Origin: Erwinia sp. E_sp_B01_1 | Lineage (GTDB): Bacteria; Pseudomonadota; Gammaproteobacteria; Enterobacterales; Enterobacteriaceae | DNA length: 64,000 nucleotides | Direction: 5' to 3' | Assembly (NCBI RefSeq): GCF_036865545.1 | Contig: NZ_CP142208.1 | Span: 2,232,001-2,296,000, forward strand | Shown here: piece by piece, positions 7,427 to 34,343 of the stretch | How positions within the stretch are numbered: position 1 is the first letter of the stretch | How the letters are laid out: each line of letters opens with the position of its first letter | Translations under genes and position numbers: made by a program | The notes under the pieces: model-generated | Databases searched by the model: none | Told to the model about the DNA's origin: nothing | The model's input: only the letters and a program-made list of their open reading frames with translations

Positions 7427-7891
7427 ATGTCACACCTGGGAAAGTGGTTGAACAACGAAAAAATTCAGTATGTTGAAGCGGTAGCAGACTGGAAAGAGGC
7501 CGTGCAGATTGCGGGGCGTCCATTACTGGCGGAGGGCGCAATTTCGCAGGATTACATTGACGCCATCATCCGTCAGAAAGAAGAGATCGGGCCCTATTTT
7601 GTTATCGCCCCCCGGATTGCCATGCCGCATGCCAGGCCTGAACAGGGCGCAAAAGCCCTGGGGTTATCGATTGTCAAACTGGCTAACCCGGTAAAGTTTG
7701 ATGCTGATGAGAACGATCCGGTAGACGCCATTTTTATGTTCGCGGCACCGGACAGCAACAGCCATATCGAAATGATTTCTCAGATGGCAGAAGTGCTTTC
7801 CGATGATGAAATAATGGAAACGATCTTTGCTGCGCGTAGCAAAGAAGAACTCAAAGCAATTCTACTGGCCGACAATAGTGTCAGTCAGTAA
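7427..7891 (+). CDS. PTS EIIA component, ascorbate (UlaC-like) type
   Basis: 154 residues, one PTS EIIA type-2 domain. The phospho-accepting histidine is His68 in APRIAMPHARPEQGA, the position used in UlaC. It passes phosphate from HPr to the EIIB next door. It lies 39 bases after transketolase with a good AGCAGGAAAA leader, in the order EIIA-EIIB-EIIC. The family imports L-ascorbate or a related compound; substrate unproven. Confidence 0.92.
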   Translation: MSHLGKWLNNEKIQYVEAVADWKEAVQIAGRPLLAEGAISQDYIDAIIRQKEEIGPYFVIAPRIAMPHARPEQGAKALGLSIVKLANPVKFDADENDPVDAIFMFAAPDSNSHIEMISQMAEVLSDDEIMETIFAARSKEELKAILLADNSVSQ

Positions 7892-7921
7892 ACAACAAAT
7901 AATTAACGGGTGAGGCAAGAT

Positions 7922-8194
7922 ATGAAAATTTTAGCGGTTTGTGGATCGGGTCTGGGCAGCAGCTTCATGATGGAAATGAACATCAAAAAAGTGTTGAAGA
8001 AACTTGAAGTGGAAGCTGAGGTAGACCATTCCGATTTAGGGTCTGTAACCCCCGATCTGGCTGATGTATTTGTGATGGCTAAAGACATTGCTTACAGTGC
8101 GAATCTTCCTGAAGACAAGGTCATTATCATCAACAACATCATTGACCTGAAAGAGGTCGAGCAAAAAATACGTGAGTATTTCGATAAGCACTGA
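7922..8194 (+). CDS. PTS EIIB component, ascorbate (UlaB-like) type
   Basis: 90 residues. The P-loop-like active site MKILAVCGSGLGSSF carries the phospho-Cys at residue 7. Start chosen at the ATG at 7922 because GAGG lies six bases upstream; a GTG start four codons earlier would overlap that ribosome binding site. It receives phosphate from EIIA and gives it to the sugar during transport by EIIC. Confidence 0.92.
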   Translation: MKILAVCGSGLGSSFMMEMNIKKVLKKLEVEAEVDHSDLGSVTPDLADVFVMAKDIAYSANLPEDKVIIINNIIDLKEVEQKIREYFDKH

Positions 8195-8232
8195 TTCCTG
8201 AATTCAGATTAACGCCTTAAGTAGAGGTTACT

Positions 8233-9605
8233 ATGTTTGCTCACAACCTTTTGCAGTTTGTCGTCGATGTCCTGAAAGTGCCCTCCATCCTTGTAGGACT
8301 GGTGGCATTGTTCGGACTGATGGCACAAAAAAGCCTTTCCCTGATGTTATCAAAGGGACAGTCAAAACTATCCTGGGCTTTTTAGTGCTGGCTGGTGGTG
8401 CATCCGTACTGGTCGGGTCACTGACGCCGCTGGGCGACATTTTCAAACAGGCTTTTGATGTTCAGGGGATCATCCCTAACAACGAAGCTATGGTCTCGAT
8501 TGCGCTGGCTAAATATGGTGCGCCAACCACGCTGATTATGGCATTCGGGATGGTGGCGAATATTGTTGTCGCCCGTTTTACCCGCCTGAAATATATCTAC
8601 CTGTCAGGGCATGTCACTTTCTATATGGCGTGCATGGTGGCGATCATCTTGTCAGTGGCTGGTTTTGAAGGTATTCAGCTTATTTACACCGGCTCTTTAC
8701 TGCTGGGTATGCTGATGGCCACTTTCCCGGCGCTGGCTCAGCCCTATATGCGTAAGATTACTGGCACTGACCAGGTTGCTTTAGCGCATACCGGGACGAT
8801 TGGGTATATCTTATCCGGCTGGATTGGATCCCTGGTAGGTAAAGGATCCAAATCTACCGAAGAGATGAACATGCCAAAAAACCTGAGTTTTTTGCGTGAC
8901 AGCACCATCTCTATCTCCCTGACGATGTTGATTATCTATTTGATTCTGTCGATTTCAGCGGGCAAAGAGTATGTGGAAAGCAACTTCAGTAATGGTCAGA
9001 ACTATCTGGTCTACTCCTTTATTCAGGCCATTACCTTTGCTGCGGGCGTATTTATCATTCTTCAGGGTGTACGTTTAATTCTGGCGGAAATTGTCCCGGC
9101 CTTTACAGGATTCTCTGAGAAGCTGGTGCCCAATGCAGTGCCTGCGCTGGATTGCCCAATCGTCTTCCCTTATGCGCCAAATGCCGTTCTGGTTGGGTTT
9201 ATCTCCAGCTTTATCGGCGGGCTGGTAGGGCTGTTCGTTCTGGGTCAGCTTCACTGGGTGCTGATCCTGCCGGGTGTGGTGCCGCACTTCTTCTGTGGGG
9301 CAACGGCTGGCGTATTTGGTAATGCCACCGGTGGTAAACGCGGGGCGATGCTGGGGGCTTTTGCTCACGGTATTTTGATCACCTTCCTGCCGGTTGCTCT
9401 GTTGCCGGTACTGGGTGCGATTGGCCTGACTAATACCACCTTCTCGGATACTGACTTTGGCGTGACGGGCATTATTCTCGGCAATATGGCGCGCTTTATG
9501 GATAAAGGCACCATCACCATGGTAATTACCGGTATCTTTGCGCTGATGGTTATTTATAACTTTACGGCTAAAAAGAAGCCAGTGGTGGAAGAGGAAGTGA
9601 GTTAA
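8233..9605 (+). pseudogene. PTS EIIC component, ascorbate (UlaA-like) type, frameshifted
   Basis: The gene starts at ATG 8233 after AGAGGTTACT and reads MFAHNLLQFVVDVLKVPSIL to about codon 33. There it leaves frame at CAAAAAAGCC (8325-8334): the run of six A would need to be seven. In frame 0 translation stops at TAG 8383; in the -1 frame the protein continues with KPFPDVIKGTVKTILGFL into the rest of a complete UlaA-type permease of about 11 membrane segments, ending at 9605. The body is otherwise uninterrupted. Either a recent inactivating deletion, a sequencing or assembly error at a homopolymer, or slippage. If real, EIIA and EIIB are stranded. Confidence 0.85.
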
Positions 9606-9752: not shown

Positions 9753-11351
9753 TTATTTCGCCAGAGCTAAGCCATCACGGCGATGATCTGACCCGGCAAC
9801 ATAGGCCACGCCATCCCGGCTTTCATCGTGATCGATGCGCTGAGCCAGTTGAGCGCTGCCGAAATCCAGATTACCCGGCGGCAATACTTCCGGCGCATGG
9901 CCCATCGCTTTCAACCCTTCAACGACTTCATCAGAGACAGTTGGCTCCAGAGTCAGCACCGAATCATCGTTGATACGCCAGCGTGGGGCATCAGAGCAGG
10001 CTTGAGGATTATGCCCCTCAGCGACACTGCGCAGCACCATCTGGACATGTCCCTGTGCCTGCATGTTGCCACCCATCACGCCAAATGCCATGACTGGCTT
10101 CTCATCACGGGTCAGAAACGCCGGGATAATACTGTGTAGCGGTTTTTTAGATGGGCCAACCTGGTTGACATGGCCGGGCGTGGTGACAAAACCGTAGCCG
10201 CGATTGTGCAATGAAATCCCTGTGCCCGGCACCACAACCCCCGAGCCAAAGCCACGGTAGTTAGACTGGATGTAGGAGACCATCCGGCCCTGGTCATCTG
10301 CGGCACAGAGATAGACAGTGCCACTGCTTTTAGGCGTTCCGGCAATGTGTTTACCCCGTAAAGCTGGGTTGATCGTTTTGGCGCGTTCAGCAAGGTACTC
10401 TTTGCTTAATAACGAGGTCGGATCAAAGCGCATATGCCGCGTATCACCAACGTGCTCATGCAGATCGGCGAAGGCGAGCCGCATTGCTTCAATTTCCAGA
10501 TGCATACGTTCGGCAGAACCCGGTGCCGTTTCGTTATAGGCAAGGTTATCCAGCAGACCCAGCGCAATCAGGGCGGCGATACCCTGACCATTAGGTGGGA
10601 TCTGATGCACTTTATAACCCTGGAAATCCACCGAGATCGGCTTAACCCATTCGCTTTTATGCGCGGCCAAATCTTCGAGGCTTAAAACTGCGCCGTGTTG
10701 TTCCGCGAAGTCGACGATTTTGCGCGCAAGGCGTCCACGATAAAACGATTCCCCTTCGGTCGCGGCAATCTCTTCCAGCGTGTCGGCCTGCTCAGGGAAA
10801 CGCCAGATTTCACCGGCTTTTGGCGCTCTTCCATCAATCGTGAAGGCGTTAAAACCAGGCTGCATATGCAGATCTTTAACCGACTGCTCCCACTGACGGG
10901 CAATCACCGGGCTGACCGGGAAGCCTTCGCGGGCATAGCGGATGGCATCAATAAAGAGATCTTTAAACGGCAGCTGGCCAAACTTTCTGGAAAGCTCAAC
11001 CCAGCCTGCAACCTGGCCTGGTACAGTAACGCTTTCCCAACCACGATAAGGCATAGAATCCAGACCGGCAAAGCGCTCAGGTGTCCAGCCAGCCGGGGAT
11101 AAGCCCGAGCTGTTCAGGCCGTGCAGCGTTTTGCCATCCCAGACCAGCGCAAAACCGTCGCCGCCAATGCCGTTCATCACCGGCTCAACCACGGTGAGCG
11201 TGATGGCCGTAGCCAGCGCCGCATCAATGGCGTTTCCGCCACGCGCCAGCGCAGCAGCACCCGCCTGAGCGGCCAGAGGCTGAGAGGTGGCCACAACGTT
11301 GCGGCCTGTTACAGGCTGTCTGCCTGATGAGAAAGGTAGATCCCAGTTCAT
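9753..11351 (-). CDS. Gamma-glutamyltransferase family Ntn-hydrolase
   Basis: 532 residues from the ATG at 11351 (AGGGG leader). The self-processing and catalytic threonine is Thr345 in PKSSGTVYLCAADDQG, followed by the small subunit with GSGVVVPGTGISLHNRG and FGVMGGNMQAQGHVQM. The family cleaves gamma-glutamyl bonds. There is no signal peptide, unlike periplasmic Ggt, so it should work in the cytoplasm, like the YwrD-type subgroup. Last gene of the operon, 13 bases after the PLP enzyme. It probably removes a gamma-glutamyl cap from an imported or made intermediate (inference). Other cytoplasmic members act on N-acyl amides, so substrate type is open. Confidence 0.88.
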   Translation of the reverse strand: MNWDLPFSSGRQPVTGRNVVATSQPLAAQAGAAALARGGNAIDAALATAITLTVVEPVMNGIGGDGFALVWDGKTLHGLNSSGLSPAGWTPERFAGLDSMPYRGWESVTVPGQVAGWVELSRKFGQLPFKDLFIDAIRYAREGFPVSPVIARQWEQSVKDLHMQPGFNAFTIDGRAPKAGEIWRFPEQADTLEEIAATEGESFYRGRLARKIVDFAEQHGAVLSLEDLAAHKSEWVKPISVDFQGYKVHQIPPNGQGIAALIALGLLDNLAYNETAPGSAERMHLEIEAMRLAFADLHEHVGDTRHMRFDPTSLLSKEYLAERAKTINPALRGKHIAGTPKSSGTVYLCAADDQGRMVSYIQSNYRGFGSGVVVPGTGISLHNRGYGFVTTPGHVNQVGPSKKPLHSIIPAFLTRDEKPVMAFGVMGGNMQAQGHVQMVLRSVAEGHNPQACSDAPRWRINDDSVLTLEPTVSDEVVEGLKAMGHAPEVLPPGNLDFGSAQLAQRIDHDESRDGVAYVAGSDHRRDGLALAK

Positions 11352-11364
11352 AATTTTCCCCTGC

Positions 11365-12717
11365 TTAAAGTGCAGCAAAAACAGCGTCGATGTCTTTCAG
11401 TAAACGTTCTGCATCCTGGGCGGTGAAAATAAGCTGTGGGCGGATCTTAAGCACGTTACCGTGGAACCCGGTTGCGGAGATCAGTACACGACGATCGCGC
11501 AGGGCATTAACCAGGCCCGCTGCCGTTTTCTGATCCGGCGTTTTGTTTTCAGCATCGCTGATGATTTCCACGCCCATATAGAGGCCAACGCCGCGCACAT
11601 CCCCGATCTGAGGATAACGTCTGGCAATACCCTGAACGCCTTCAAGCAGCAGACGGCCCACTTTATCGCAATTTTCCATCAGCTTGTCTTCGACAATAAC
11701 GTCTAACGTTGCCTGAGCCGCGGCGATTGCCACGGTATTGCCGCCAAAAGTATTGAAGTAACGCATATCACGGCCAAAGCTTTCCACCACCTCGTGCGTG
11801 ACGGCGATACCGGCAACCGGATAGCCGTTGCCCATTGGTTTGCCCATGGTGATGATGTCTGGATCGATACCGTGACGCTGATAACCCCACATCGCATCGC
11901 CGCAGCGGCCAAAGCCACACTGCACTTCATCGGCGATAAACAGGCCGCCCGCTTCTCTGACCACTTCAGCCACCGGTGCGAGGATATCCGGGTAAGGATA
12001 GATGCCGTCGGAGGTGAACAGGGAGTCAACCACAAAGGCTGCCAGGCCATCACCGTGACGTTCGAGATCTTTGATTTGCTCTCTGACATGGGCCGCCAGC
12101 AACTTGCCCATCTCTTCTGGTGATGTGCGGTAAGAATCCGGGGCAGGGACGCGACGAACCCAGGTGCCTAACGGCGAGTGCTCACCCAGCGAAGGGGAGA
12201 AGGAAGCCGTCATATCAGAGTTACCGTGATAGGCCTCAGAAGTGACGATAATGCCGTTTTTGCCGGTATGGTGTTTAGCAATACGAATCGCCAGATCGTT
12301 GGCTTCTGAGCCGGTACAGGTGAACATGGTATGGCCGGTTTCACTCATGCGGCCGCCAAAGGTTTTCAGCAGTTGCTCAGAGTAATTCAGAATATCGTCG
12401 CTGACATAACGGGTATGGGTGCAGAGTTTTTCCATCTGCTGAGCCACCGCCTGAACGACGCGAGGATTGCCATGCCCGATAGAAACCACGTTGTTGTAGG
12501 CATCAAGATATTCATTGCCGTTCTTATCCCAAAGCAGCACGCCTTTCGCTTTGCTGATTTCCACAGGATTGCTGTAGAACAGGCGGTAGGAAGGCCCAAG
12601 TAACCGCATACGACGCTGTACCAGCTCGCGGGTTTCTGCATCGAGATGATCAAGATCGTTCGGGTTAAATGCGTTGTTCATTTTACCGCGAGGTGCATTT
12701 GGCTTAGAAGTTGTCAT
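11365..12717 (-). CDS. Class III PLP-dependent enzyme, phospho-lyase-like
   Basis: 450 residues. The PLP lysine is Lys293 in ITMGKPMGNGYP and the ring-binding Asp263 is in FIADEVQCGFGRCG. Segments such as YLDAYNNVVSIGHGNP, TRYVSDDILNYSEQL and VPAPDSYR resemble the ethanolamine-phosphate and 5-phosphohydroxylysine phospho-lyases (AGXT2L1/2) more than classic omega-aminotransferases, as far as I can judge by eye. Those enzymes remove phosphate and ammonia from a phosphorylated amino alcohol to give an aldehyde. The gene directly follows an APH-fold kinase, the expected partner. Plain aminotransferase activity is the alternative. Confidence 0.85.
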   Translation of the reverse strand: MTTSKPNAPRGKMNNAFNPNDLDHLDAETRELVQRRMRLLGPSYRLFYSNPVEISKAKGVLLWDKNGNEYLDAYNNVVSIGHGNPRVVQAVAQQMEKLCTHTRYVSDDILNYSEQLLKTFGGRMSETGHTMFTCTGSEANDLAIRIAKHHTGKNGIIVTSEAYHGNSDMTASFSPSLGEHSPLGTWVRRVPAPDSYRTSPEEMGKLLAAHVREQIKDLERHGDGLAAFVVDSLFTSDGIYPYPDILAPVAEVVREAGGLFIADEVQCGFGRCGDAMWGYQRHGIDPDIITMGKPMGNGYPVAGIAVTHEVVESFGRDMRYFNTFGGNTVAIAAAQATLDVIVEDKLMENCDKVGRLLLEGVQGIARRYPQIGDVRGVGLYMGVEIISDAENKTPDQKTAAGLVNALRDRRVLISATGFHGNVLKIRPQLIFTAQDAERLLKDIDAVFAAL

Positions 12718-12754
12718 AAAAACAGTTCTCTTATTGATGGACTTGAGGATAAAA

Positions 12755-13855
12755 CTACTCTGCCAGGGCAGTAACGTTTTTTAAGGAGGCGGAAACTTCT
12801 TCTACTGAATGGGCAAGGAACCAGCGGAGTTGTGCCCAGCCCTGTTCGGTATTGCGCATGATGTAGGGTTCGTTTTCCGGGAAAAGCTTCACGCGCCAGT
12901 GGGTGATCAGGGTTCTGGCAATCACCCGCGCCATGGTCAGGTGCGGGATCAGCTCAAGCTCTTCCTCTGTGAGTTCAGTAACTTTGAGATAACCGGCTAA
13001 AAGATCTTTACCCGCGTTAAAAATATCTTCTCCGCGTTCACCCTGCGCATTACGGGGCAACTGGTTCAGCAGGGCAGTTGAAACATCAATGGCTATGGCT
13101 GTTTTCACCGCGTCACCAAAATCGATAATGCCGGTGACGAAGGCAGACGCATCGTGATCCACCACGATGTTGGACTGGCTGAAATCGTTGTGCAGCACCT
13201 GTGTGCGTAACGCTCTGATACGGGGAAGCAGAGCAAGATAGCGATCCATGCCCTGTTCGAGCAGTGCGCGTTGTTCTTCGTCGGCAATTTCGGGCAACAG
13301 ATGCTGAAGCTCTTTCAGATGCTGCACATCCCATGCCAGTACGCGGGAGTCGCCCAGATGAGAAAAACCGGTACAGGCCAGGCGTAACCGCCCGAGCACT
13401 TCCCCAATGTGCTCGCGTTCCGCCGCTGATGAGGTGGTTCTGTCCAGAGGTGTTCCCTCAAGATAAGTCATCAGGCGAACATGCCTTGTCTGTCCTGCCC
13501 GGTCGGTGATCACCGGGTGCAGAGAGCCGTCAAGCGCCTTGACCGTATGGGGGACAGGTAAGGAGGGATCCTGGGTAGTGATGTATTCCAGCAACTCTGT
13601 CTGAAAATCAATTTCCTCACTATCCTCAGAAGGATTAGCCACCTTAAGAATATATTTCTCGCCCTGGCTGGTTTTCATCAGGAAGGTGTCATCCTTCTCG
13701 GTATCCAGACGCTGTGCAGAAGCTGAAAGGCTGTAAACAGTGGAGGCCAGGCGGATAGCTTCATATTCCCCCATCACCGTATAGGCGCCGGCAAGGCCAC
13801 CTTCTTCTGCCACTTTCTCAATATTGTCATCGATAATTTGCGTGGTTGGTTTCAT
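12755..13855 (-). CDS. APH-fold small-molecule kinase (hydroxylysine/amino-alcohol kinase-like)
   Basis: 366 residues with the APH/choline-kinase fold: ATP lysine at Lys71 (KYILKVAN), catalytic HNDF at 222-225 and the metal aspartate in IIDFGD (245-248). The family phosphorylates hydroxyl groups of aminoglycosides, choline, homoserine or hydroxylysine. The neighbouring phospho-lyase-like PLP enzyme points to an amino alcohol or hydroxy-amino acid as substrate, as in the kinase/phospho-lyase pairs known for hydroxylysine in animals and for amino alcohols in Erwinia. No resistance role is suggested by context. A TTGTCGACAA operator lies 54 bases upstream, so it may head its own transcript. Confidence 0.85.
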   Translation of the reverse strand: MKPTTQIIDDNIEKVAEEGGLAGAYTVMGEYEAIRLASTVYSLSASAQRLDTEKDDTFLMKTSQGEKYILKVANPSEDSEEIDFQTELLEYITTQDPSLPVPHTVKALDGSLHPVITDRAGQTRHVRLMTYLEGTPLDRTTSSAAEREHIGEVLGRLRLACTGFSHLGDSRVLAWDVQHLKELQHLLPEIADEEQRALLEQGMDRYLALLPRIRALRTQVLHNDFSQSNIVVDHDASAFVTGIIDFGDAVKTAIAIDVSTALLNQLPRNAQGERGEDIFNAGKDLLAGYLKVTELTEEELELIPHLTMARVIARTLITHWRVKLFPENEPYIMRNTEQGWAQLRWFLAHSVEEVSASLKNVTALAE

Positions 13856-13908
13856 AGTGATTACTTAATTAGTGAGTATCAGTACACTCTTTCTGCCTTT
13901 GTTGTCGT

Positions 13909-13918
13909 TTGTCGACAA
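13909..13918. promoter_or_regulatory. TTGTCGACAA palindrome, candidate operator (kinase promoter)
   Basis: Perfect 10-bp palindrome, extended to AATTGTCGACAAA on the minus strand, in the gap upstream of the kinase gene. It recurs at 16041, 17427 and, with one change, 17637, all within this locus. The likely reader is the GntR/FCD protein at 18815. Confidence 0.6.
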
Positions 13919-14011
13919 TTTAAAAAGGCAGAAAGATCCCCATTTCAATGTGCTTATTCAGCCGCAAGCGCTACTGCCAGTTCCCTGCTGCAACTGAAGG
14001 TAATCAGTGAT

Positions 14012-14431
14012 TTATAATTCCGAAATTATCTGGTCGAACAGGGCAACCGACGCCCTGGCCACTTCAGCGGCCTGATGAGGTTTCACTCCGGCCACGCCTA
14101 CTGCACCTATCGTCTGTTCAAAAGCGATAAGTGGGATACCGCCTTCAAGAGCGCCTTTCACCGGCGCGCTGAGAAACGCAACCCGGCCACTGTTGATCTC
14201 GTCTTCAAAAACTTTGGTTTCGCGACGGGCAATGGCAGCCGTTTTAGCTTTATCCTGAGCGATATAAACGCTCACTGGCGAAGTGCCATCCGTTCGGGCG
14301 ACCATCACCGCGTGTCCACCGTCATCAACTACGGCTACAGCCACATTCCAGCCTTGTCCGGTCGCATAATTCATCGCCTGATTGCAGACTGCTCTGGCCG
14401 TGGCTAAATCAATAATCAGCTTACTTTTCAT
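14012..14431 (-). CDS. HbpS/GlcG-like protein
   Basis: 139 residues covering one HbpS/GlcG (PF03928) domain: ATARAVCNQAMNYATGQGWNV, AVVDDGGHAVMVARTDGTSP, GGIPLIAFEQTIGAVGVAG. The fold is known from a heme-binding sensor protein in Streptomyces and from GlcG of the glycolate locus, where its role is unclear; PduO-type members act with cobalamin. No signal peptide. It sits 18 bases after the TRAP membrane gene (AAGGATAAAAAT before the ATG), so it is part of the operon. Its molecular role here cannot be stated. Confidence 0.8.
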   Translation of the reverse strand: MKSKLIIDLATARAVCNQAMNYATGQGWNVAVAVVDDGGHAVMVARTDGTSPVSVYIAQDKAKTAAIARRETKVFEDEINSGRVAFLSAPVKGALEGGIPLIAFEQTIGAVGVAGVKPHQAAEVARASVALFDQIISEL

Positions 14432-14449
14432 ATTTTTATCCTTTTACCC

Positions 14450-16330
14450 TTACAGATCATTGAGCAAGCCGGTGGAGAACCACGGCACCAGAGCGACAAC
14501 CAACACCACTGCGATAAAAGCCAGCATGTAGATCCAGATATCTTTCATCACTTTATCTGGTGCTACCTGACCAATTGCACAGGCTGAGTAGAATCCGACG
14601 CCGAAAGGCGGAGAGAAGAGGCCAATCGACATTGAGAGCACCACCACCATTGCATAGTGCACGCCGTGAATACCGAATTCACTGGCGATAGGGAACATCA
14701 GAGGAGCAAACAGGACGATGGCCGGGAACCCTTCCAGAATGCTGCCCAGAATGGCGAAGAACACCACCGACACCAGAATGAAGCCAATCCAGCCACCGGG
14801 CAGGCTCTTCATCAGGGTCATCAGGTCATCTGAGAAGCCACTTTGAGTCAGCGCCCAGGCCATACCGCCCGCCAGGCCGGTCACCAGCATAATGGCGCCC
14901 GTCAGTGAAGCAGTGGCGATCATCGCGCGGTAAATACGTTTCAGCGGGAACTTACGGTAGACAAAGAGTCCACAGAAGATGGCGTAAACCACGCCTACCG
15001 TTGCCACTTCCGTTGCCGTCGCCACACCTTCCACCACTGCCGCGCGAATCAGTAAAGGAAGCGCGAGGGCCGGAAGGGCGATGACCAGCGCTTTAAACAC
15101 CTCTTTTTTACTGGCGCGTTCTGCACTGACCGTGGTGCTTTTGCGCTGGCGGAAGAAGACCACCGCCGCCAGAGCCAGCAGGCCGAGCAGGGCCGGAACA
15201 AGTCCACTGACAAACAGCGCGGCAATCGAGACGCCCGATGAAACCCCCACAGCGATAAGAATGATGCTTGGCGGGATAGTTTCAGCCATCGCCCCGGATA
15301 CCGAGAGCAGCGCGACAGTCTCGCCTTCGCTGTTTCCACGACGTTTCATTTCCGGCAGCAGGATCGGGGCAATTGCCGCCATATCAGCGGATTTTGAACC
15401 TGAAATTCCCGATACCAGGTACATCGCAGCAATCAGAACGTAATGGAAGCCGCCCTTCACATGGCCCAGCAGTTTCACCATCAGGTCGATCAGCGCTTTG
15501 GAAAGCCCGGTGGCTTCCAGCAGGACGCCGACGAAGATAAACAGCGGAATGGAAAGCAACACAAAGTCAGAGATAGCCGCATCCAGCCGGTTGATCACTA
15601 TGCTGAACGGCGCATGGGTCATGATGGCGATATAGGCCAGGGTCGCCATGGCAAAAGTCAGGGCAATTTCCAGGCCCGCTGCGATACAGACCAGCACCAT
15701 CAGCACAAAGAAGAAAATCAGGCTGTAATTGCCGATGCTGTTAAAAAAGGGCCCTGCTGCCCAGAAAGCGACCGCAATCACGCCGATAATTACCGCGGAT
15801 CCTAAAAGGGTGGAGAGACGGGCGATATCCTGCAGACGTGAAAGACAAGTCAGCAACATCAATGCAAAACCGACGGTGATAGAGGCCGCTCTGTATCCCA
15901 CTGAAATTTGAAGAGAAGGGGTCTTCTCAATCCAGGAGTGCAGGGTGTAATTCCATGAAGCGACCAGCAGAACGGCGATCACTGCCGTAAGCAGTGTCCA
16001 GGTAAACACCTGCAGGCGATGCTGAGTGGATTGTGAGAACTTGTCGACAATAAAACCGAGCTTCATATGCTGAGCGTTGCGCAGGGCCAGAACAGCGCCA
16101 AACATAGAGAGCCAGGCAAACAGGATTAATGCCAGTTCATCACTCCAGAAAATGGGCGAGTGCAACACGTAACGGGCGAATACCCCCATTGCAAGGAGCA
16201 CTGTCTCAAACAGGATAATAGCCGCAGCCAGGCCACCCACTATCTCTCCAGCGATCGCTTCGATACGCCCCAACAGCGTCGGGCGACGGTCGGAATACAG
16301 TGAATTTTCCACAGAAAAGGGGATACTCAT
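14450..16330 (-). CDS. TRAP transporter fused small and large membrane subunits (DctQM)
   Basis: 626 residues. The first about 175 residues are a four-helix DctQ-type domain (FETVLLAMGVFARYVLHSPIFWSDELALILFAW motif region); the rest is a DctM-type carrier with the typical FVGVLLEATGLSKALIDLM, SGSKSADMAAIAPILLPEM and PPSIILIAVG elements. It uses the sodium gradient to take up the ligand presented by the periplasmic receptor encoded 36 bases upstream. A TTGTCGACAA palindrome lies inside its 5' third (16041-16050). Confidence 0.93.
   Translation of the reverse strand: MSIPFSVENSLYSDRRPTLLGRIEAIAGEIVGGLAAAIILFETVLLAMGVFARYVLHSPIFWSDELALILFAWLSMFGAVLALRNAQHMKLGFIVDKFSQSTQHRLQVFTWTLLTAVIAVLLVASWNYTLHSWIEKTPSLQISVGYRAASITVGFALMLLTCLSRLQDIARLSTLLGSAVIIGVIAVAFWAAGPFFNSIGNYSLIFFFVLMVLVCIAAGLEIALTFAMATLAYIAIMTHAPFSIVINRLDAAISDFVLLSIPLFIFVGVLLEATGLSKALIDLMVKLLGHVKGGFHYVLIAAMYLVSGISGSKSADMAAIAPILLPEMKRRGNSEGETVALLSVSGAMAETIPPSIILIAVGVSSGVSIAALFVSGLVPALLGLLALAAVVFFRQRKSTTVSAERASKKEVFKALVIALPALALPLLIRAAVVEGVATATEVATVGVVYAIFCGLFVYRKFPLKRIYRAMIATASLTGAIMLVTGLAGGMAWALTQSGFSDDLMTLMKSLPGGWIGFILVSVVFFAILGSILEGFPAIVLFAPLMFPIASEFGIHGVHYAMVVVLSMSIGLFSPPFGVGFYSACAIGQVAPDKVMKDIWIYMLAFIAVVLVVALVPWFSTGLLNDL
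16041..16050. promoter_or_regulatory. TTGTCGACAA palindrome inside the TRAP gene
   Basis: An exact third copy of the locus palindrome, within the coding sequence of dctQM about 280 bases after its start codon. It could be an auxiliary operator for looping or a roadblock. Confidence 0.4.
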
Positions 16331-16366
16331 ATTTACCTCAGGAACTTAGGGTAATGAAACAAACAA

Positions 16367-17383
16367 TCATGCGGTGGCATACTTTTCGTAAAGCGCCCAC
16401 ACTTCCTCACCAACAATCCCGCGCCACTTTTTATAAAAACCGGCATCAACCAGCTTCTGGCGGAAGGGTTCTCTGTCGACATCATTAAACGCCATGCCTT
16501 TTTTGCTCAGAGAGTCACGAAGCTGGGTATTCAGCGCAACCATGTCCTTACGCTGTAACAGGGCAGTATCATTAAAGGTCTGAGTAAACACGGTGCGAAG
16601 GTTATCCGGAATACCGCTGTAGATATCACTGTTACACACCACGGTCAGCCCATCCCACATGTGGCTGGTCATTGAGCAATACTTCTGCACTTCATAAAAC
16701 TTCCAGAACTCAGCGTGGGTAAGGGCATTCTCCTGACCATCAACCACATGCGTTTTCAGGGCTGAGTAAGTCTCTTTAATGCTCAGTGAAGTGGGCGCTG
16801 CCCCCAGTGAAACGAACAAATCCTGTTGTATACGTGCGCTGGGAACACGAATTTTCATCCCGGCGAGATCCCCAACGGTCTTAATCGGGTGCACGTTGTT
16901 GGTAATCTGACGGAATCCGTTGTCCCAGGTTTTTTCAAGGGGAGTGATACCCAGTTTGGACAAACGCTGGCGGACGTAGTGGCCCACATCGCCATCCCAG
17001 GCTGCCCAGACGGTATCGTAGTTCTTATAGCCGAAACCCAGACCGGCAATGTTAGCGGAAGGCTCCAGAGATTCGAAAAACAGCAGAGAGGTGCAGACGG
17101 CATCCAGTGCACCAGAACGGACCTGGCTCATCATGTCGCTGTCAGATCCCAATGCGCTGTCAGCGAAGATTCGGACTTTTAACTGACCGTTGGTTTTGGC
17201 TTCAACGGCTTTAGCCGCCTCTTTCAAACGCACGTTAAGAGGGTGCGCGCTGGGAAAAGAATTTCCAATTTTGAGTGTGTAGCTGGATCCTGCAGCAAAG
17301 GCTTTCGAAAAAGTTCCCGCTAAAGGCAACGTCAGCACTGCGGCGGCCGATGCTTTTAAAAACTTGCGACGGTTAATGCTCAT
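16367..17383 (-). CDS. TRAP transporter substrate-binding protein (DctP family), Tat-exported
   Basis: 338 residues from the ATG at 17383 (GGAG six bases upstream). The N-terminus NRRKFLKASAAAVLTLPLAG and cleavage near AFAAG is a twin-arginine signal, so it is probably exported folded. The DctP domain follows: LKIGNSFPSAHPLNVRLKEA, GMKIRVPSARIQQDLFVSLGA (with the conserved carboxylate-binding Arg) and PTSLSIKETYSALKTHVVDGQENAL. It binds an organic acid or a zwitterion carrying a carboxylate and hands it to DctQM. First gene of the minus-strand operon. Confidence 0.93.
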   Translation of the reverse strand: MSINRRKFLKASAAAVLTLPLAGTFSKAFAAGSSYTLKIGNSFPSAHPLNVRLKEAAKAVEAKTNGQLKVRIFADSALGSDSDMMSQVRSGALDAVCTSLLFFESLEPSANIAGLGFGYKNYDTVWAAWDGDVGHYVRQRLSKLGITPLEKTWDNGFRQITNNVHPIKTVGDLAGMKIRVPSARIQQDLFVSLGAAPTSLSIKETYSALKTHVVDGQENALTHAEFWKFYEVQKYCSMTSHMWDGLTVVCNSDIYSGIPDNLRTVFTQTFNDTALLQRKDMVALNTQLRDSLSKKGMAFNDVDREPFRQKLVDAGFYKKWRGIVGEEVWALYEKYATA

Positions 17384-17426
17384 GGCAATCTCCACAAAAG
17401 GACTGATTTTCATTATTAAGTGATGA

Positions 17427-17436
17427 TTGTCGACAA
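17427..17436. promoter_or_regulatory. TTGTCGACAA palindrome, candidate operator (TRAP promoter)
   Basis: Exact copy of the locus palindrome, 44 bases upstream of the dctP start codon. Confidence 0.6.
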
Positions 17437-17636
17437 CCAACCATGCTGTTTTTTACTGAAGCAATTTAAAGGCCAATATTCAAATTTGCGCAAAATATTA
17501 TTTATAATTGTATGTTTTAAATGGATTTATTGTTAATTTCAGACTGAATGGTAAATATTAATCTGGGGGTGTGGTGGCTTTTTGATTGCACCAAATAAAC
17601 GCACTGAAGCACTATTTTGGGGAGGATTAAATTATA

Positions 17637-17646
17637 TTGACGACAA
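17637..17646. promoter_or_regulatory. TTGACGACAA, degenerate copy of the locus palindrome
   Basis: One mismatch to TTGTCGACAA, about 105 bases upstream of the MocA-type dehydrogenase gene on the plus strand. Confidence 0.45.
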
Positions 17647-17751
17647 TCGCCGATGGTCGTAGCATCTTATTTAAACCCCACCCGTTATCCTGTGTCAGGG
17701 GCGTTTTTTAATAGCAATCAGCTACTGATTCTTTATAAATAAGGTAAATAT

Positions 17752-18759
17752 ATGTCGGATACTATCAAGCCTGTAGGAATGGCCGTTGTTGGCGCAGGCC
17801 GCGTTTCAGATGCCCACCTCGGTGCCATCACCTCGCAGCCGGAGAAAGGGAAACTGATCGCGGTTATCGATCAGAACATTGAGCTGGCCAGAGCTTCTGC
17901 CGCAAAGCATGGCGCGCTTTATGCCTTTTCCTCCGTTGAAGAAGCGTTAAATTGTTCAGAAATTGAAGCCTTCGATCTTTGCCTGCCTAACCAGTTACAT
18001 GCTCCTGTGGCCATTGAATGTCTTCGCGGTGGCCGACATGTGCTGGTTGAAAAACCCATGACGGATGATTACCAGACGGCAATGCAGATGGCCGCCGTGG
18101 CAGATGAAACGAAACTTGTTCTCGCCATTGGGCAGTCGCGTCGTCATGGTTCAGCAGTGCGTTACGTTCAGGACAATATGGCGCGTTTTGGCACCTTGCG
18201 TGCCGTTCAGGCCTCATTCTGCATGTACTGGGATGGCCCACAGGCACCCTGGTGGAAAGATCGCACGCGTGAAGAAGGTCTGGTTTTCCCGATGCTGGGA
18301 TCGCATGCGATTGATTTTGTCCAGGCAATGCTGGGAGACTACCCGCTGCGGGTTCATGCGGAAGCGGCCGGACTGCGTGACTGCTGGAAAGCAGAAGATG
18401 AAGCGATGATCCTGATCCGCTATCCGGATGATAAGATGGCTACCGTTCATTTGTCTTACAATCAACAGCCATTCTTCGAGCGCTACGTGCTGTTGTTTAA
18501 CGGATATGTTGTGGAAATCCGCGATGTGAACACCGTCTTAGTCAATGGGGAAGTTGTGCTTTCTCCGCCAGAAGGCGAGGGCGCTACGCTGTTGGTCACG
18601 AATGAACTGTTCCGCAATCAATTTACTGAATTTGCGCATGCAATTCGTGGCTTGCCTAACAGAAGCGTTCTGCACCATCCGGGTGCGGCACTTATCAGAG
18701 TCATTGAAGCTTCACTGACCTCTGCGCTGAAAGGCGAAACCGTTCACTTCGACTGGTAA
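17752..18759 (+). CDS. Gfo/Idh/MocA family oxidoreductase
   Basis: 335 residues. N-terminal Rossmann domain with GMAVVGAGRVSDAHLGAI and the family motif VEKPM; C-terminal alpha/beta substrate domain. Members oxidise or reduce sugars, inositols or related polyols with NAD(P). First gene of the plus-strand arm of the locus, with AAGGTAAATAT before the ATG, followed by a regulator and a peptidase. The substrate is unknown; with the opposite operon it may process the carbon skeleton after deamination. Confidence 0.87.
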   Translation: MSDTIKPVGMAVVGAGRVSDAHLGAITSQPEKGKLIAVIDQNIELARASAAKHGALYAFSSVEEALNCSEIEAFDLCLPNQLHAPVAIECLRGGRHVLVEKPMTDDYQTAMQMAAVADETKLVLAIGQSRRHGSAVRYVQDNMARFGTLRAVQASFCMYWDGPQAPWWKDRTREEGLVFPMLGSHAIDFVQAMLGDYPLRVHAEAAGLRDCWKAEDEAMILIRYPDDKMATVHLSYNQQPFFERYVLLFNGYVVEIRDVNTVLVNGEVVLSPPEGEGATLLVTNELFRNQFTEFAHAIRGLPNRSVLHHPGAALIRVIEASLTSALKGETVHFDW

Positions 18760-18814
18760 TTCCCGCCGGTTGATCCAGAGCTAACTTAACCAGGTTTCAG
18801 AAAGGATACTTATT

Positions 18815-19516
18815 GTGGTTGTTAAACGTTCACTCGCGCCGTTAGAAAAGCGGTCAATAGAAGCACTGGCTACAGACAGCCTGCGGGAATTTATCCTTTC
18901 TGGCGCACTGCAGCCAGGTGAGCGGATCACAGAAACCACGCTGGCGGATCAGATGGGGATTGGCCGGGCAACCCTGCGTACCGGCTTGCACCAGTTGGCC
19001 TCGGAAGGATTACTGGTCAAAAAACCCTATACCAGTTGGGAAGTGAAATCCCTGACCGCTGACGATGCCTGGGAACTCTGGACACTGCGGGCCAGCCTTG
19101 AAAGTCTGGCGATCAGGCTGGCCGCGGAGAATATGACGCCTCATTTGCAGTCCCTGATTGAAGAGGCGATGAACAACCTTGTCCATGCCTGCATGAATGG
19201 CGATGTGCATGAGGCAAGTGAATGCGATTTCGCGCTTCACCGCACGTTGATTGAATGCGTTGGGCATACACGCCTTGCCGATCAGTATCGTCTGGTTGAG
19301 CAGCAGGTCCGCCTTTATATCCAGATCAGCAACCAGTTAATGACCGGTAATCTGCCTGGCATCATTGAGCAGCACCGGCCCATGATCGATGCGTTGCTGC
19401 GGGGCGATGGCCTGGCGGCCGCACATGAAGCCTGGGCGCACAATGAAAGCGAGGGTGGCAAGCTGGTGGCCTGGTTACATCAGCGTGCAAGGCTCGAGTC
19501 CGCAACTAAACGTTAA
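18815..19516 (+). CDS. GntR-family regulator, FCD (FadR) subfamily
   Basis: 233 residues starting with GTG at 18815 (AAAGGATACTTATT upstream). Winged HTH in residues about 15-80 (DSLREFILSGALQPGERITE, LADQMGIGRATLRTGLHQLASEGLL), then an all-helical FCD ligand domain with metal-binding His/Asp positions (ECDFALHRTLIE, IIEQHRPMIDALLRGD). FCD repressors bind short palindromes of the form TTGTnnACAA; the locus contains three exact TTGTCGACAA sites and one near copy, so it is the obvious reader. Encoded between a dehydrogenase and a peptidase gene in one transcript. Confidence 0.9.
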   Translation: MVVKRSLAPLEKRSIEALATDSLREFILSGALQPGERITETTLADQMGIGRATLRTGLHQLASEGLLVKKPYTSWEVKSLTADDAWELWTLRASLESLAIRLAAENMTPHLQSLIEEAMNNLVHACMNGDVHEASECDFALHRTLIECVGHTRLADQYRLVEQQVRLYIQISNQLMTGNLPGIIEQHRPMIDALLRGDGLAAAHEAWAHNESEGGKLVAWLHQRARLESATKR

Positions 19517-19532
19517 TAACAGGAAATGAAAA

Positions 19533-20720
19533 ATGGGTACCACCGCTATTCCAGTGACTAAGGGAAGGCCTCCCTTCGACAGTAAGAAACTTGATACTTA
19601 TCTCGAGAATGCCGGATTAGACGTTATTCTGGTGTCATCACGCCATAATCTGCGTTATTTACTCGGTGGTTATACGTTTTTCTTTTTTGACTCTTTTGAA
19701 GCCTTTGGCACCAGTAAATATTTCCCGTTGATGGCCTATTTCCGGGGGAAACCGGAAAAAACAGTCTATATCGGTCATGGTATGGAATCCTTTGAACTGG
19801 AGCTGGATAAGTTCTGGATGCATGAAGTCAGCACCAAAGCCTGGGGTATTCAGGATTCGCTGAACTTTGCCGTGCCCTATATCCGGGATATGGGGGCAGA
19901 TATTACCAAAATCGGCATTGAACCTGACTTCCTGCCTTATGAAGCCGCACTGGCATTAAAGAAACATTTGCCCGGCACTGAACTGGTCAATTGCCAGCGT
20001 CCTCTGGAACTGTTGCGGTCGATCAAAACTTCCCGTGAACTTGAGATGATCAAAAAGGCTTCCGATGACGTGGTTCACTCAATGCTGGCCGTTGTGGCTG
20101 CGCACGGTCCTGGCGCCACTAAACATCAGTTGGTTTCGGCACTTGCAGCCGAAGAGATCAAACGTGGCCTCTCTTATGAATACTGCCTCATTACCGCAGG
20201 AACCAGCCTTAACCGCGCTCCTTCTGATTACGTTCTGAAGCAGGGCGATATTGTCTCTATCGACTCAGGTGGACAACTCGGAGGTTACATTGGCGATCTT
20301 TGCCGTATGGCCATTGTGGGTGAGCCGGATGCGGAACAGGAAGACTTGATCGCGGAAGTTGATGCCATCCAGACGGCAGCCCGCGGTGCCATTCAGGCAG
20401 GTGTATCAGGCAAAGAGATCTACACTGCCGCCAATGCGCAGATTGCACGTTCGCCTAATGCAAAATATGTCGACTTTGTGGCTCACGGCCTGGGGCTTGT
20501 CACCCACGAGACTCCGCGTCTTGCCCCATCTGGCTACCCGTACGACAACCCGGATGCTGAACGCCCGCTGGAGCCAGGCATGGTGATATCTGTTGAAGCG
20601 GCGATTAAACATCCCCGCGTAGGCTTTATCAAACTGGAAGATACCCTGGCCATTGAACTTGATGGTTCCGTAAAGGCTTATGGGGACTTTGGCCGTGGCT
20701 GGACTCGCTTCGGCGGTTGA
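19533..20720 (+). CDS. M24 family metallopeptidase (Xaa-Pro dipeptidase/creatinase-like)
   Basis: 395 residues: N-terminal creatinase-like domain (LENAGLDVILVSSRHNLRYLLGG) and a pita-bread catalytic domain. The five metal ligands are visible: Asp in SIDSGGQ, Asp in GDLCRMA, His in VAHGLGL, Glu in VISVEAAI, Glu in IKLEDTLA. Members cleave Xaa-Pro bonds or C-N bonds of creatine or ectoine. In this context it may hydrolyse a small amide or modified amino acid, not a peptide (inference). It follows the GntR gene by 16 bases and ends the plus operon ahead of a terminator. Confidence 0.88.
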   Translation: MGTTAIPVTKGRPPFDSKKLDTYLENAGLDVILVSSRHNLRYLLGGYTFFFFDSFEAFGTSKYFPLMAYFRGKPEKTVYIGHGMESFELELDKFWMHEVSTKAWGIQDSLNFAVPYIRDMGADITKIGIEPDFLPYEAALALKKHLPGTELVNCQRPLELLRSIKTSRELEMIKKASDDVVHSMLAVVAAHGPGATKHQLVSALAAEEIKRGLSYEYCLITAGTSLNRAPSDYVLKQGDIVSIDSGGQLGGYIGDLCRMAIVGEPDAEQEDLIAEVDAIQTAARGAIQAGVSGKEIYTAANAQIARSPNAKYVDFVAHGLGLVTHETPRLAPSGYPYDNPDAERPLEPGMVISVEAAIKHPRVGFIKLEDTLAIELDGSVKAYGDFGRGWTRFGG

Positions 20721-20880: not shown

Positions 20881-21672
20881 TTATTTGCTTATCTTGTGTA
20901 CTGAGGTGCCTTCATAAAGTTCTGCAGGCAAAAAAGTCACTTTTGGGGCCGAAGTGGGGTTCGCAAGTCGTTCGCCAATATTTTTAAATATTCCTTCAGC
21001 CTGAAGCTCAGCGGTTGAACCAAGCGTGGTAAATGCGGATGAGTGATTTTGTGCCTCATCCGGACCGCCAAGAAGAATTACGCTTAACTCCTCCGGGACT
21101 TTTATATGGCTGAGAGACATCGCCTCAAGAAGACGCGCGTGATGCTCTACTCCCCAACAGATCAAGGCAGTAAAAGGGAGTTTACCTGTGCTCTTCCGTT
21201 TTTGTTGCAGCGTCTCAGCAACGGCCATTTCGTAGTCGCCCTGGATCACCACAGGCATGCGGATTAAATACTCATCAGCGGAATATTGACGCTCATCACA
21301 CCAGTTAAGAAAACGACGAATTCCCATCAGGTTAGCCATGAAAGGACGATCTGTAGTGACGAAGCCGATCTGCTTATGGCCTTTACCGGACAAAATTCTT
21401 AGTGCTTGTGAGACTGAGGAACCCCAGTCGTGGCCAATACAATCCACTTCTGTTCCGGTCAGCCCCAGCCCGTGAAGAATAATACCCGACGCTTTTTCTC
21501 TTATTGCCTGGAGCGTTTGAATAGCAATGATTTTGAATGAGGACTGAACCACACAGGCATCAAATGCTGGAAGTCCCTGAATAGCCAGTCGGGCGTGATC
21601 GGCATCGTTATAGGAGACTTCAAGAACTTTACTCCCAGCCGATGTCAGTCTGTCCTCCAGTTTCTGAAGCAC
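20881..21672 (-). pseudogene. LacI-type effector-binding domain lacking its DNA-binding domain
   Basis: The 263-residue frame aligns with the periplasmic-binding-protein-like core of LacI/GalR regulators (VLQKLEDRLTSAGSKVLEV, IILHGLGLTG, VSQALRILSGKGHKQIGFVT, FTALICWGVEHHARLLEAM, LSVILLGGPDEAQNHSSAFTT). Open frame continues upstream to about 21795 but contains no HTH (the usual TVSRVLN helix is absent). Proteins of this family are about 330-345 residues, so the 5' end is lost or replaced. The first start is a GTG without a good ribosome binding site. Probably a decaying repressor; a ligand-sequestering protein is a less likely alternative. Confidence 0.6.
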
Positions 21673-21789
21673 AGTCCGGCCATAGCCGGCGCTGACCGAA
21701 CGGCGTAAAAACAGGATGTTCCGCGATAAATAGACGGATATTTCTGGAGCCGAAAGTAGAGAACTCCCCCTTTGTTGCTGACCGCAAAA

Positions 21790-21981
21790 AAGTTAGTGGA
21801 TATGGCTGTGGCCATCAAAGAGGGGCGCGATCACCGGGCATCTGGCGAAATGGCGCTGCATATTTTTGAAATTCTTGACGGGTTGGAAAAATCCGCAGGT
21901 AAGGAAATTGTGCTTCAGACTACCTGCGAACGCCCGACACCAATCCGAAGAGGCGCGGGAGAGCAAACGTTGCAGGGATAG
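21790..21981 (+). pseudogene. C-terminal remnant of a Gfo/Idh/MocA oxidoreductase
   Basis: The translation VDMAVAIKEGRDHRASGEMALHIFEILDGLEKSAG ... CERPTPI matches the closing helix and strand of MocA-type dehydrogenases (RASGELALHVLE ... ERPxPL). Everything upstream of this tail is missing. Together with the truncated LacI gene it marks a deleted sugar or inositol cassette. A strong terminator follows at 22022. Confidence 0.65.
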
Positions 21982-22021
21982 TCGAAACGCATGGAGTGCA
22001 ACAGCTTTGTCGCGCCAGGAA

Positions 22022-27528: not shown

Positions 27529-27532
27529 CGTC

Positions 27533-29050: not shown

Positions 29051-29054
29051 GCAG

Positions 29055-31716: not shown

Positions 31717-31720
31717 GCCG

Positions 31721-34236: not shown

Positions 34237-34246
34237 TAGCCCCTGT

Positions 34247-34330: not shown

Positions 34331-34343
34331 TTAACAGAGCCTG

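What the first reader, a model, noticed from the sequence alone, without database searches (positions are those of the whole stretch)
9753..20720. Candidate amino-alcohol catabolic system: TRAP uptake, APH kinase, phospho-lyase-like PLP enzyme, gamma-glutamyl hydrolase, M24 hydrolase, MocA dehydrogenase
Seen: two divergent operons with an unusual combination, kinase next to a class III PLP enzyme whose segments look like phospho-lyases, plus a cytoplasmic GGT homologue, an HbpS/GlcG-like protein and a Tat-exported TRAP receptor. Known: kinase plus phospho-lyase pairs degrade hydroxylysine in animals and amino alcohols (ethanolamine, 1-aminopropan-2-ol) in Erwinia. Inference: a compound carrying a free or gamma-glutamylated amino alcohol is imported, uncapped, phosphorylated, and split to an aldehyde, phosphate and ammonia. 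I know no described pathway with this full set.
Basis: partly seen in the sequence, partly recalled or inferred. Interest (0 to 1): 0.72.

Follow-up and report, generated by a model that had tools for sequence, protein, structure and literature searches.

The report
Gene cluster for degrading amino-alcohol compounds
A bacterium related to Pantoea carries a co-regulated set of genes that probably imports an acid-bearing, amide-capped amino-alcohol compound and breaks it down by adding a phosphate and then eliminating it, a chemistry known from a few enzymes but, as far as I could find, not described with this set of genes.

Summary
The genes are real and correctly named: GGT-family hydrolase, class III PLP enzyme, APH-type kinase, HbpS-like protein, fused TRAP permease and Tat-type TRAP receptor, divergent from MocA dehydrogenase, GntR regulator and M24 hydrolase. 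The PLP enzyme belongs to the phospho-lyase family: it falls in a 100/100-supported clade with human ETNPPL and the Arthrobacter phospholyase, apart from nine aminotransferase-type enzymes, and shares their signature residues. A kinase relative lies beside, or is fused to, the PLP gene in 24 of 28 loci examined. New here: the palindrome TTGTCGACAA occurs at six places in the 4.8 Mb genome, three of them in this cluster, and in 5 of 6 plasmid loci that encode close relatives of this GntR. One, in Thioclava, holds kinase, phospho-lyase, another GGT, amidases and a metallopeptidase in two divergent operons. The full set is rare: of 25 related loci, one has a GGT relative and none TRAP or M24. The substrate is unknown; a carboxylated beta-hydroxy amine carried as an amide fits best.

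The parts
9753..11351 (-). GGT-family Ntn-hydrolase homologue, no export signal seen, probable start ATG 11351
   Evidence: PF01019 484 bits; below the g_glut_trans equivalog cut-off, 339.6 vs 357.85; best solved relative 2nlz 475 bits; nucleophile Thr354 and Gly436/Gly437 kept, Arg114/Asn411/Gln430/Asp433/Ser462 equivalents replaced; start
11365..12717 (-). class III PLP enzyme, phospho-lyase family
12755..13855 (-). APH-family small-molecule kinase
   Evidence: PF01636 102 bits; HNDFSQSN and IIDFGD motifs visible in the ORF; relatives paired with or fused to the phospho-lyase
13909..13918 (.). TTGTCGACAA palindrome in the gap before the kinase gene, putative GntR operator
14012..14431 (-). 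HbpS/GlcG-like protein
   Evidence: PF03928 92 bits
14450..16330 (-). fused TRAP membrane subunits DctQ-DctM
   Evidence: PF04290 and PF06808 in one ORF
16041..16050 (.). TTGTCGACAA palindrome inside the dctQM reading frame, function unclear
16367..17383 (-). TRAP solute receptor DctP with twin-arginine signal, probable start ATG 17383
   Evidence: TIGR00787 213.6 bits vs 175.05 and TIGR01409 21.3 vs 16.7; Arg in KIRVP aligned with the Arg of KLRVP in SiaP 8cp7, chain position 148, taken as Arg-147
17427..17436 (.). TTGTCGACAA palindrome upstream of dctP, putative GntR operator
17637..17646 (.). TTGACGACAA, one-base variant upstream of the mocA operon, in the same gap
17752..18759 (+). Gfo/Idh/MocA-family dehydrogenase
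   Evidence: PF01408, PF22725; best solved relative only 88 bits
18815..19516 (+). GntR-family regulator with FCD ligand domain
   Evidence: PF00392, PF07729; about 48% to Thioclava and K84 regulators in loci that hold phospho-lyase genes
19533..20720 (+). M24/creatinase-fold metallohydrolase
   Evidence: PF00557, PF01321; the Asp, Asp, His, Glu, Glu positions of solved prolidases (roles recalled) are kept in the alignment

Best explanation
This is one GntR-controlled catabolic regulon made of two divergent operons and an internal promoter. The TRAP system imports a carboxylate-bearing compound that contains a beta-hydroxy primary amine, probably held as an amide or small peptide. The GGT-family hydrolase and/or the M24 hydrolase free the amine (inferred). 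The APH-type kinase phosphorylates the hydroxyl next to the CH2-NH3+ group, and the PLP enzyme eliminates phosphate and ammonia to leave a semialdehyde (inferred from family membership, not measured). MocA would oxidise or reduce a precursor or product (inferred). The regulator binds TTGTCGACAA-type sites before dctP, before mocA and before the kinase gene and is relieved by the substrate or a product (site conservation shown, binding inferred).
For: PLP enzyme in a 100/100 clade (branch length 2.33) with ETNPPL and 5g4i, apart from nine aminotransferase-type rows; still 100/99 after six long-branched rows were taken out. The 24 rows of that clade share N75, N76, R103, W277, P294, M295, N297, N322, S414 and K424, which none of the nine has. 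Kinase relative adjacent or fused in 24 of 28 PLP loci examined, one 867-aa fusion. TTGTCGACAA: six places in the genome, three in this cluster, 0 of 200 shuffles of the window reach three; the other three lie inside open reading frames. Palindrome present in 5 of 6 loci with a GntR of at least 40% identity and 0 of 15 with a more distant GntR, Fisher p = 0.0003. Thioclava: kinase, phospho-lyase, C69-like and amidase genes divergent from an ABC transporter, M81 peptidase, two amidases, a GGT and the 48% GntR, with two palindromes in the central gap. Two Thioclava strains keep both palindromes in a gap that has largely diverged beyond its first 70 or so bases. DctP keeps the carboxylate-selecting Arg.
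Against: No activity, ligand or binding was measured. Of 25 kinase/PLP-type loci examined, a GGT relative is in one (L135), and TRAP and M24 relatives are in none. Among 249 genomes of the family of G682 close PLP and GGT relatives never co-occur. Close GGT relatives often stand without the pair: L041, L042, L043, L046 by annotation and L097. K84 (L029) has the phospho-lyase and regulator but a DUF4147/MOFRL kinase in place of the APH kinase. The genome-wide number of palindromes (6) is not raised: the reversed control pattern has 10; only the clustering is unusual. One of the three palindromes in the cluster lies inside dctQM. In K84 and Thioclava the palindromes lie 2 kb and 11 kb from the GntR gene, in transporter promoter gaps.
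Confidence: 0.58

Rival explanations
1. The set degrades plain amino alcohols (ethanolamine, 1-aminopropan-2-ol) by kinase and phospho-lyase, as recalled for Erwinia; TRAP brings the free amino alcohol in.
For: Kinase plus phospho-lyase is the right chemistry; a TRAP receptor that binds ethanolamine exists (passages).
Against: That receptor lacks the Arg-147 equivalent, while this one keeps it. A free amino alcohol needs no GGT-type or M24 hydrolase, yet amide hydrolases recur in the Thioclava cluster.
Confidence: 0.12
2. The substrate is a free hydroxy amino acid such as 5-hydroxylysine: imported by TRAP as a zwitterion, phosphorylated and split to 2-aminoadipate semialdehyde, as in animals.
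For: It has a carboxylate and a terminal beta-hydroxy amine; hydroxylysine kinase and phospho-lyase are the characterised animal pair (Veiga-da-Cunha 2012, seen only as a reference; the pathway itself is recalled).
Against: Does not explain the GGT and M24 hydrolases; none of the nine genes is assigned to lysine or aminoadipate metabolism.
Confidence: 0.15
3. Unrelated operons that happen to be neighbours: a TRAP/HbpS uptake operon, a kinase/phospho-lyase/GGT operon and a MocA/M24 operon with different substrates.
For: The four TRAP relatives read elsewhere sit with sugar-acid, keto-acid or other genes, not with kinase/phospho-lyase; M24 and GGT relatives mostly have other neighbours; TRAP and M24 relatives are absent from 25 of 25 related loci.
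Against: An M24 relative (50%) lies beside a more distant PLP/phosphotransferase pair in Sinorhizobium meliloti LMB1.
Confidence: 0.12
4. The PLP enzyme is an ordinary aminotransferase or racemase.
For: Class III fold; automatic names in public records say aminotransferase.
Against: Tree and signature residues; nearest solved chains are two phospho-lyases at 348 and 321 bits, the next a racemase at 179.
Confidence: 0.03

Closest known systems
Ethanolamine-phosphate phospho-lyase ETNPPL (AGXT2L1, 6tor) and the Arthrobacter phospholyase (5g4i)
   Same: One well-supported clade, same signature residues and catalytic Lys
   Different: Separate bacterial branch; substrate unknown; gene paired with a dedicated kinase gene
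Fused kinase / phospho-lyase-type proteins of the PRK06148 and PRK06149 models
   Same: Window kinase and PLP enzyme match the two ends of these models
   Different: Separate genes here; both are far below the model cut-offs; the middle segment of those models (an M23-type domain, recalled) has no counterpart between the two genes
2nlz-type GGT-related hydrolases ('cephalosporin acylase' of Bacillus halodurans, listed as BhGGT in PMC8062742)
   Same: 475-bit match over nearly the whole length; Ser and His at the Arg114 and Ser462 positions, as described for extremophile GGTs
   Different: Gene context here is a kinase/phospho-lyase operon; natural substrate unknown here
DctP-type TRAP transporters, nearest solved receptor 4oan
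   Same: 305-bit match, next 138; carboxylate-binding Arg kept
   Different: Ligand of this receptor unknown; a 2-acetolactate-like ligand for 4oan is recalled, not checked
Thioclava plasmid cluster (L135)
   Same: GntR 48%, palindrome, kinase 45%, phospho-lyase 64%, a GGT, a metallopeptidase, two divergent operons
   Different: ABC instead of TRAP transporter, GGT only 29% identical, M81 instead of M24, three amidases and a C69-like gene, no MocA gene annotated

Membership tests
Phospho-lyase branch of class III PLP enzymes | Groups with characterised phospho-lyases, not aminotransferases | tested here: met
   100/100 support in a 35-row tree, 100/99 in a 29-row tree without the longest branches
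Phospho-lyase branch of class III PLP enzymes | Signature residues shared with ETNPPL and 5g4i and absent from aminotransferases | tested here: met
   24 phospho-lyase-clade rows against 9 aminotransferase-type rows
Phospho-lyase branch of class III PLP enzymes | Releases phosphate and ammonia from a phospho-amine | not testable with these tools
   needs enzyme assay
APH-type kinase partnered with a phospho-lyase | APH domain; gene adjacent to or fused with phospho-lyase | tested here: met
   PF01636; 24 of 28 PLP loci, fusion
APH-type kinase partnered with a phospho-lyase | Phosphorylates an amino alcohol | not testable with these tools
   needs assay
Classical gamma-glutamyltransferase | Catalytic Thr and oxyanion Gly-Gly | tested here: met
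   T354, G436, G437
Classical gamma-glutamyltransferase | Arg114, Asn411, Gln430, Asp433, Ser462 (E. coli numbers) of the gamma-glutamate pocket | tested here: not met
   S, Y, R, G, H at these places; extremophile GGTs share the Arg-to-Ser and Ser-to-His changes
Classical gamma-glutamyltransferase | NCBIfam g_glut_trans equivalog cut-off | tested here: not met
   339.6 against 357.85 bits
DctP-family TRAP transporter | Receptor above family cut-off, DctQ and DctM present, Arg-147 equivalent | tested here: met
Erwinia amino-alcohol kinase/phospho-lyase pathway | Free amino alcohol as imported substrate | tested here: inconclusive
   receptor Arg argues against it, no ligand measured
Ectoine hydrolase DoeA/EutD (M24) | Equivalog cut-off | tested here: not met
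   29-30 bits against 575 and 613
FCD-type GntR regulon | Regulator in the cluster and a shared palindrome before its operons | tested here: met
   binding itself not tested

The most novel reading that the evidence does not exclude
The regulon degrades isoserine (3-amino-2-hydroxypropanoate) or a close carboxylated relative, carried as an amide: the phospho-lyase splits the 2-phosphate to malonate semialdehyde, phosphate and ammonia. Reasons: the TRAP receptor demands a carboxylate; the chemistry demands a phosphate next to CH2-NH3+; and in K84 a glycerate-kinase-type (DUF4147/MOFRL) gene stands directly before a 63% identical phospho-lyase in place of the APH kinase, with a 48% identical GntR and the same palindrome in the locus. 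Isoserine is glycerate with an amine in place of the terminal hydroxyl. Against it: clusters of DUF4147 and enolase-type genes with this GntR type but no phospho-lyase exist, so the K84 kinase may serve glycerate itself.
Probability: 0.2. Interest if true: 0.72.

Novelty: new variant of a known kind. Interest (0 to 1): 0.56.

Why it matters
Relatives of this PLP enzyme are very common (7996 of the 8000 candidates scored at E <= 1e-60), and in the 120 rows listed every name given by a source is an aminotransferase name. In the ten paper searches made here (open-licence PubMed Central only, listings and a few passages seen) I met no bacterial kinase/phospho-lyase operon tied to amide hydrolases. 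A regulator with a recognisable operator that links kinase, phospho-lyase and amide hydrolases in distant bacteria gives a handle for finding the substrate, and the receptor arginine narrows the search to acids. It would also correct many misleading names.

Tried and rejected
The single-protein scan of genome contigs gave only five distant class III enzymes (25-29% identity) and was no help for synteny. Searches for close PLP relatives: 1 of 369 class genomes (own only, E <= 1e-180), 5 of 398 phylum genomes (own included, E <= 1e-165), 5 of 249 in the family of G682, 7 of 144 in the genus of G998. Kinase in the own family: 24 of 392 genomes, own included, all others at most 36% identical. M24 in the genus: 1 of 37, the own genome. 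So the island is rare and probably acquired, not a genus trait.

Rejected: the PLP enzyme as aminotransferase; the M24 protein as ectoine hydrolase or DddP (far below cut-offs); the own-genome paralogue at C1:38202 as part of the system (the only relative of the window kinase in the genome at E <= 1e-5 is itself; the paralogue sits by a DeoR-type gene and sodA, gene names by eye). Promoter and terminator scans were at chance level (11 vs 11.0 and 14 vs 14.4) and are not used. I first read the missing gamma-glutamate residues of the GGT as excluding gamma-glutamyl substrates; one search shows that extremophile GGTs share two of these changes, so I withdrew that. Paper searches for 4oan and acetolactate did not give the ligand of 4oan. 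No structure prediction was run. The Fisher test compares loci found in different ways, of different lengths and partly related, so its p value is a guide only. It used loci of at least 10,000 bases; L030 was left out because it lies inside L135, and the own-genome loci L109 and L110 and the window were left out; 2 of 28 loci without a GntR hit have the palindrome (L134, whose plasmid carries the GntR outside the stretch; and L128). In one search I used 28 longer PLP loci, not the short ones; three of them (L080-L082) had been found through the kinase, which leaves 21 of 25; L044 was counted as without kinase although its record annotates a phosphotransferase next to the PLP gene. Of the contig-length matches between I dropped 3843, because the two sources differ.
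Full report
What is there. The window lies in a 4.80 Mb, one-contig genome. A neighbouring 2.2 kb PTS stretch (7427-9578) is about 81% identical to Pantoea agglomerans plasmids, and the closest named relatives of the PLP and M24 proteins are in Pantoea cypripedii, 87% and 85%. The reported genes are all present: leftward GGT-like, PLP class III, APH kinase, HbpS-like, fused DctQM, DctP; rightward MocA, GntR/FCD, M24. The DctP and GGT-like starts in the ORF list are upstream of the likely ones (17383 and 11351). G+C content does not set the cluster off from its surroundings, but the genus does not share it: M24 at E <= 1e-80 in 1 of 37 genomes, the own one.

The PLP enzyme. Its nearest solved chains are the Arthrobacter phospholyase 5g4i (348 bits) and ETNPPL 6tor (321 bits); the next is a racemase at 179 bits. 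In a 35-row maximum-likelihood tree it falls in a clade with both phospho-lyases, support 100/100 on a branch of 2.33, with nine aminotransferase-type rows outside (anchors named by NCBIfam, among them ArgD, AstC, BioA, GABA transaminases and HemL, the last an aminomutase; one row, from L034, was named from its annotation only). Several anchors had long branches, so I rebuilt without six long rows: 29 rows, 100/99 (one anchor is still long). Residues fixed in all 24 rows of the clade and found in none of the nine others include N75, N76, V77, R103, G222, G258, W277, P294, M295, N297, N322, S414 and K424, around the invariant Lys293.

The kinase and the pair. The kinase is an APH-family protein. 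In 24 of 28 loci with a PLP relative, a kinase relative lies within 300 bases on the same strand or is fused; without the three loci that were found through the kinase it is 21 of 25. One locus, L108, encodes both in one 867-residue ORF. The four without are K84, L044, the own-genome paralogue and its same-genus relative L111. In K84 a DUF4147/MOFRL glycerate-kinase-type gene stands directly before the phospho-lyase.

The regulator and its site. TTGNCGACAA matches eight times in the window counting both strands, that is at five places, against 0.54 expected. Three of them lie before dctP and before mocA (as TTGACGACAA), in the one divergent gap, and before the kinase gene; one lies inside dctQM and one far away at 31848. 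The strict palindrome TTGTCGACAA occurs at six places in the whole genome; three are in this cluster. The other three lie inside open reading frames (positions). The genome total is not raised (reversed control 10), only the clustering is. No shuffle of the window of 200 reaches three. Searching 72,556 plasmid records with the GntR protein, the best hits are five Thioclava plasmids (48%), all five already met here through the kinase or phospho-lyase, then Ensifer adhaerens (48%) and Rhizobium rhizogenes K84 (47.6%). Of six loci with a GntR of at least 40% identity, five hold the exact palindrome (L029, L135, L137, L138, L139), and the sixth, L136, has a one-base variant in a promoter gap; of 15 loci with a more distant GntR none has the exact one (Fisher p = 0.0003, loci not independent). 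In L137, L138 and L139 a palindrome is right beside the GntR gene; in K84 and Thioclava it lies 2 and 11 kb away in transporter promoter gaps. In two Thioclava strains the gap between the divergent operons has diverged beyond its first 70 or so bases, but both palindromes are kept. Six aligned GntR proteins share the RAT(L/V)R segment. This is good evidence for the operator, without a binding experiment.

A distant sister regulon. The Thioclava cluster (L135) runs: PLP, kinase, C69-like gene, amidase, small ORF, then two palindromes, then ABC receptor, two permeases, ATPase, M81 metallopeptidase, amidase, GGT, amidase, GntR. Its PLP and kinase are 64% and 45% identical to the window's, its GGT only 29% and closer to classical GGTs than to 2nlz (170 against 104 bits). 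So a GGT of another branch, another transporter and another metallopeptidase accompany the same kinase, phospho-lyase and regulator. Other pairs also have amide hydrolases beside them by annotation: an amidase in Thioclava FTW29, a deacetylase-type and a Zn-dependent hydrolase in Chelatococcus. PLP and GGT relatives carry the same organism name and contig length in Paraburkholderia fungorum (589409) and P. tropica (85249), and the same length with a shared source in two unnamed contigs (151817, 13183); PLP and M24 do so in P. cypripedii (1498851) and two unnamed contigs (21363, 151817). Contig length is a proxy; I could not read these contigs. In both trees the two Paraburkholderia PLP proteins lie in the five-row clade of the window protein (96/96; 100/98).

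Results against. Of 25 related loci examined, a GGT relative at E <= 1e-10 is in one, L135, and DctQM, DctP, HbpS, MocA and M24 relatives are in none. In 249 genomes of the family of G682 (unnamed; I take it for Burkholderiaceae) the PLP relative (E <= 1e-165) is in 5, the GGT relative (E <= 1e-180) in 33, none in both. The 73% identical GGT of G821 has no kinase or PLP relative within its 20 kb (L097). Four annotated GGT loci lack the pair. By the families, 14 of 20 kinase/PLP-type loci have a haloacid-dehalogenase-type gene, an FAD oxidoreductase or an aldehyde dehydrogenase nearby (names from the annotation of L031). The four TRAP loci read stand with sugar-acid, keto-acid or other genes, not with the pair.

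What enters the cell. TRAP DctP receptors use a conserved arginine (Arg-147 of SiaP) to hold a carboxylate; 5943 of 6142 sequences have it, and the Chromohalobacter receptor that binds ethanolamine lacks it (passages of PMC4646407). In the alignment with SiaP 8cp7 the window receptor has Arg at this place (KIRVP against KLRVP, chain position 148 of a chain with one extra first residue). So the imported compound most likely carries a carboxylate.

The GGT homologue. It keeps the nucleophile Thr and the oxyanion glycines, but Arg114, Asn411, Gln430, Asp433 and Ser462 of the E. coli enzyme are Ser, Tyr, Arg, Gly and His (roles in passages of PMC8062742). Extremophile GGTs share the Ser and His changes. 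It is thus a member of the GGT superfamily near 2nlz, able in principle to cut a gamma-glutamyl or another acyl amide; which one is open.

Mechanism, shown and inferred. Shown by sequence: family of each protein, pairing, shared putative operator, carboxylate-type receptor. Inferred: import of an acidic amide, release of a beta-hydroxy amine, phosphorylation, elimination to a semialdehyde, ammonia and phosphate, MocA redox step, relief of GntR repression. Substrate identity is a guess; isoserine is offered as the boldest reading because of the glycerate-kinase-type replacement in K84.

Comparison and novelty. The core works like the hydroxylysine and ethanolamine-phosphate routes of animals and the amino-alcohol route of Erwinia (both recalled; Veiga-da-Cunha 2012 was seen only as a reference in PMC8154272). 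Membership in the phospho-lyase branch is met by sequence tests; membership in a specific named pathway is not established. I call it a new variant of a known kind.

Noticed in passing
G000:C1:38202-39506 (L109 8098-9516), outside the window: A second phospho-lyase-clade enzyme, 49-50% identical, without a kinase nearby, beside a DeoR-type regulator and sodA (names by eye). In 28 of 35 other same-genus genomes searched some relative of the window enzyme has E <= 1e-60, at 41-51% identity. It may act on a phospho-amine that arises in the cell.
   Followed up: partly
window 20881-22000: A LacI-type reading frame without a normal start, followed by what reads by eye like the C-terminal end of a MocA/inositol-dehydrogenase gene: the right border looks like a decayed locus.
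   Followed up: no
L134 (NZ_CP135445.1 25687-38700): Thioclava sp. FTW29 has the amidase/C69/kinase operon with both palindromes, but uvrB follows where the phospho-lyase stands in its relative L135.
   Followed up: partly
L136, L137, L138: The same GntR type also stands beside DUF4147 glycerate-kinase-type and enolase-type genes without a phospho-lyase, suggesting that the regulator family senses small hydroxy acids.
   Followed up: partly
plasmid collection: Klebsiella plasmid records hold matches to the PLP enzyme (122 records) and the kinase (39 records); not looked at.
   Followed up: no
window 25733-30218: Next operon by eye: VOC protein, HIBADH-like dehydrogenase, aldehyde dehydrogenase, M20 amidohydrolase; another acid or amide catabolic set a few kb away, possibly linked.
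   Followed up: no
window 31664-36099: By eye a PAAR/DUF2235-like reading frame followed by a long secreted-looking protein, perhaps a type VI secretion cargo; not searched.
   Followed up: no
G000:C1:2211940-2213182 (outside the window): A class III aminotransferase gene read as two overlapping half-length frames, probably a broken gene.
   Followed up: no
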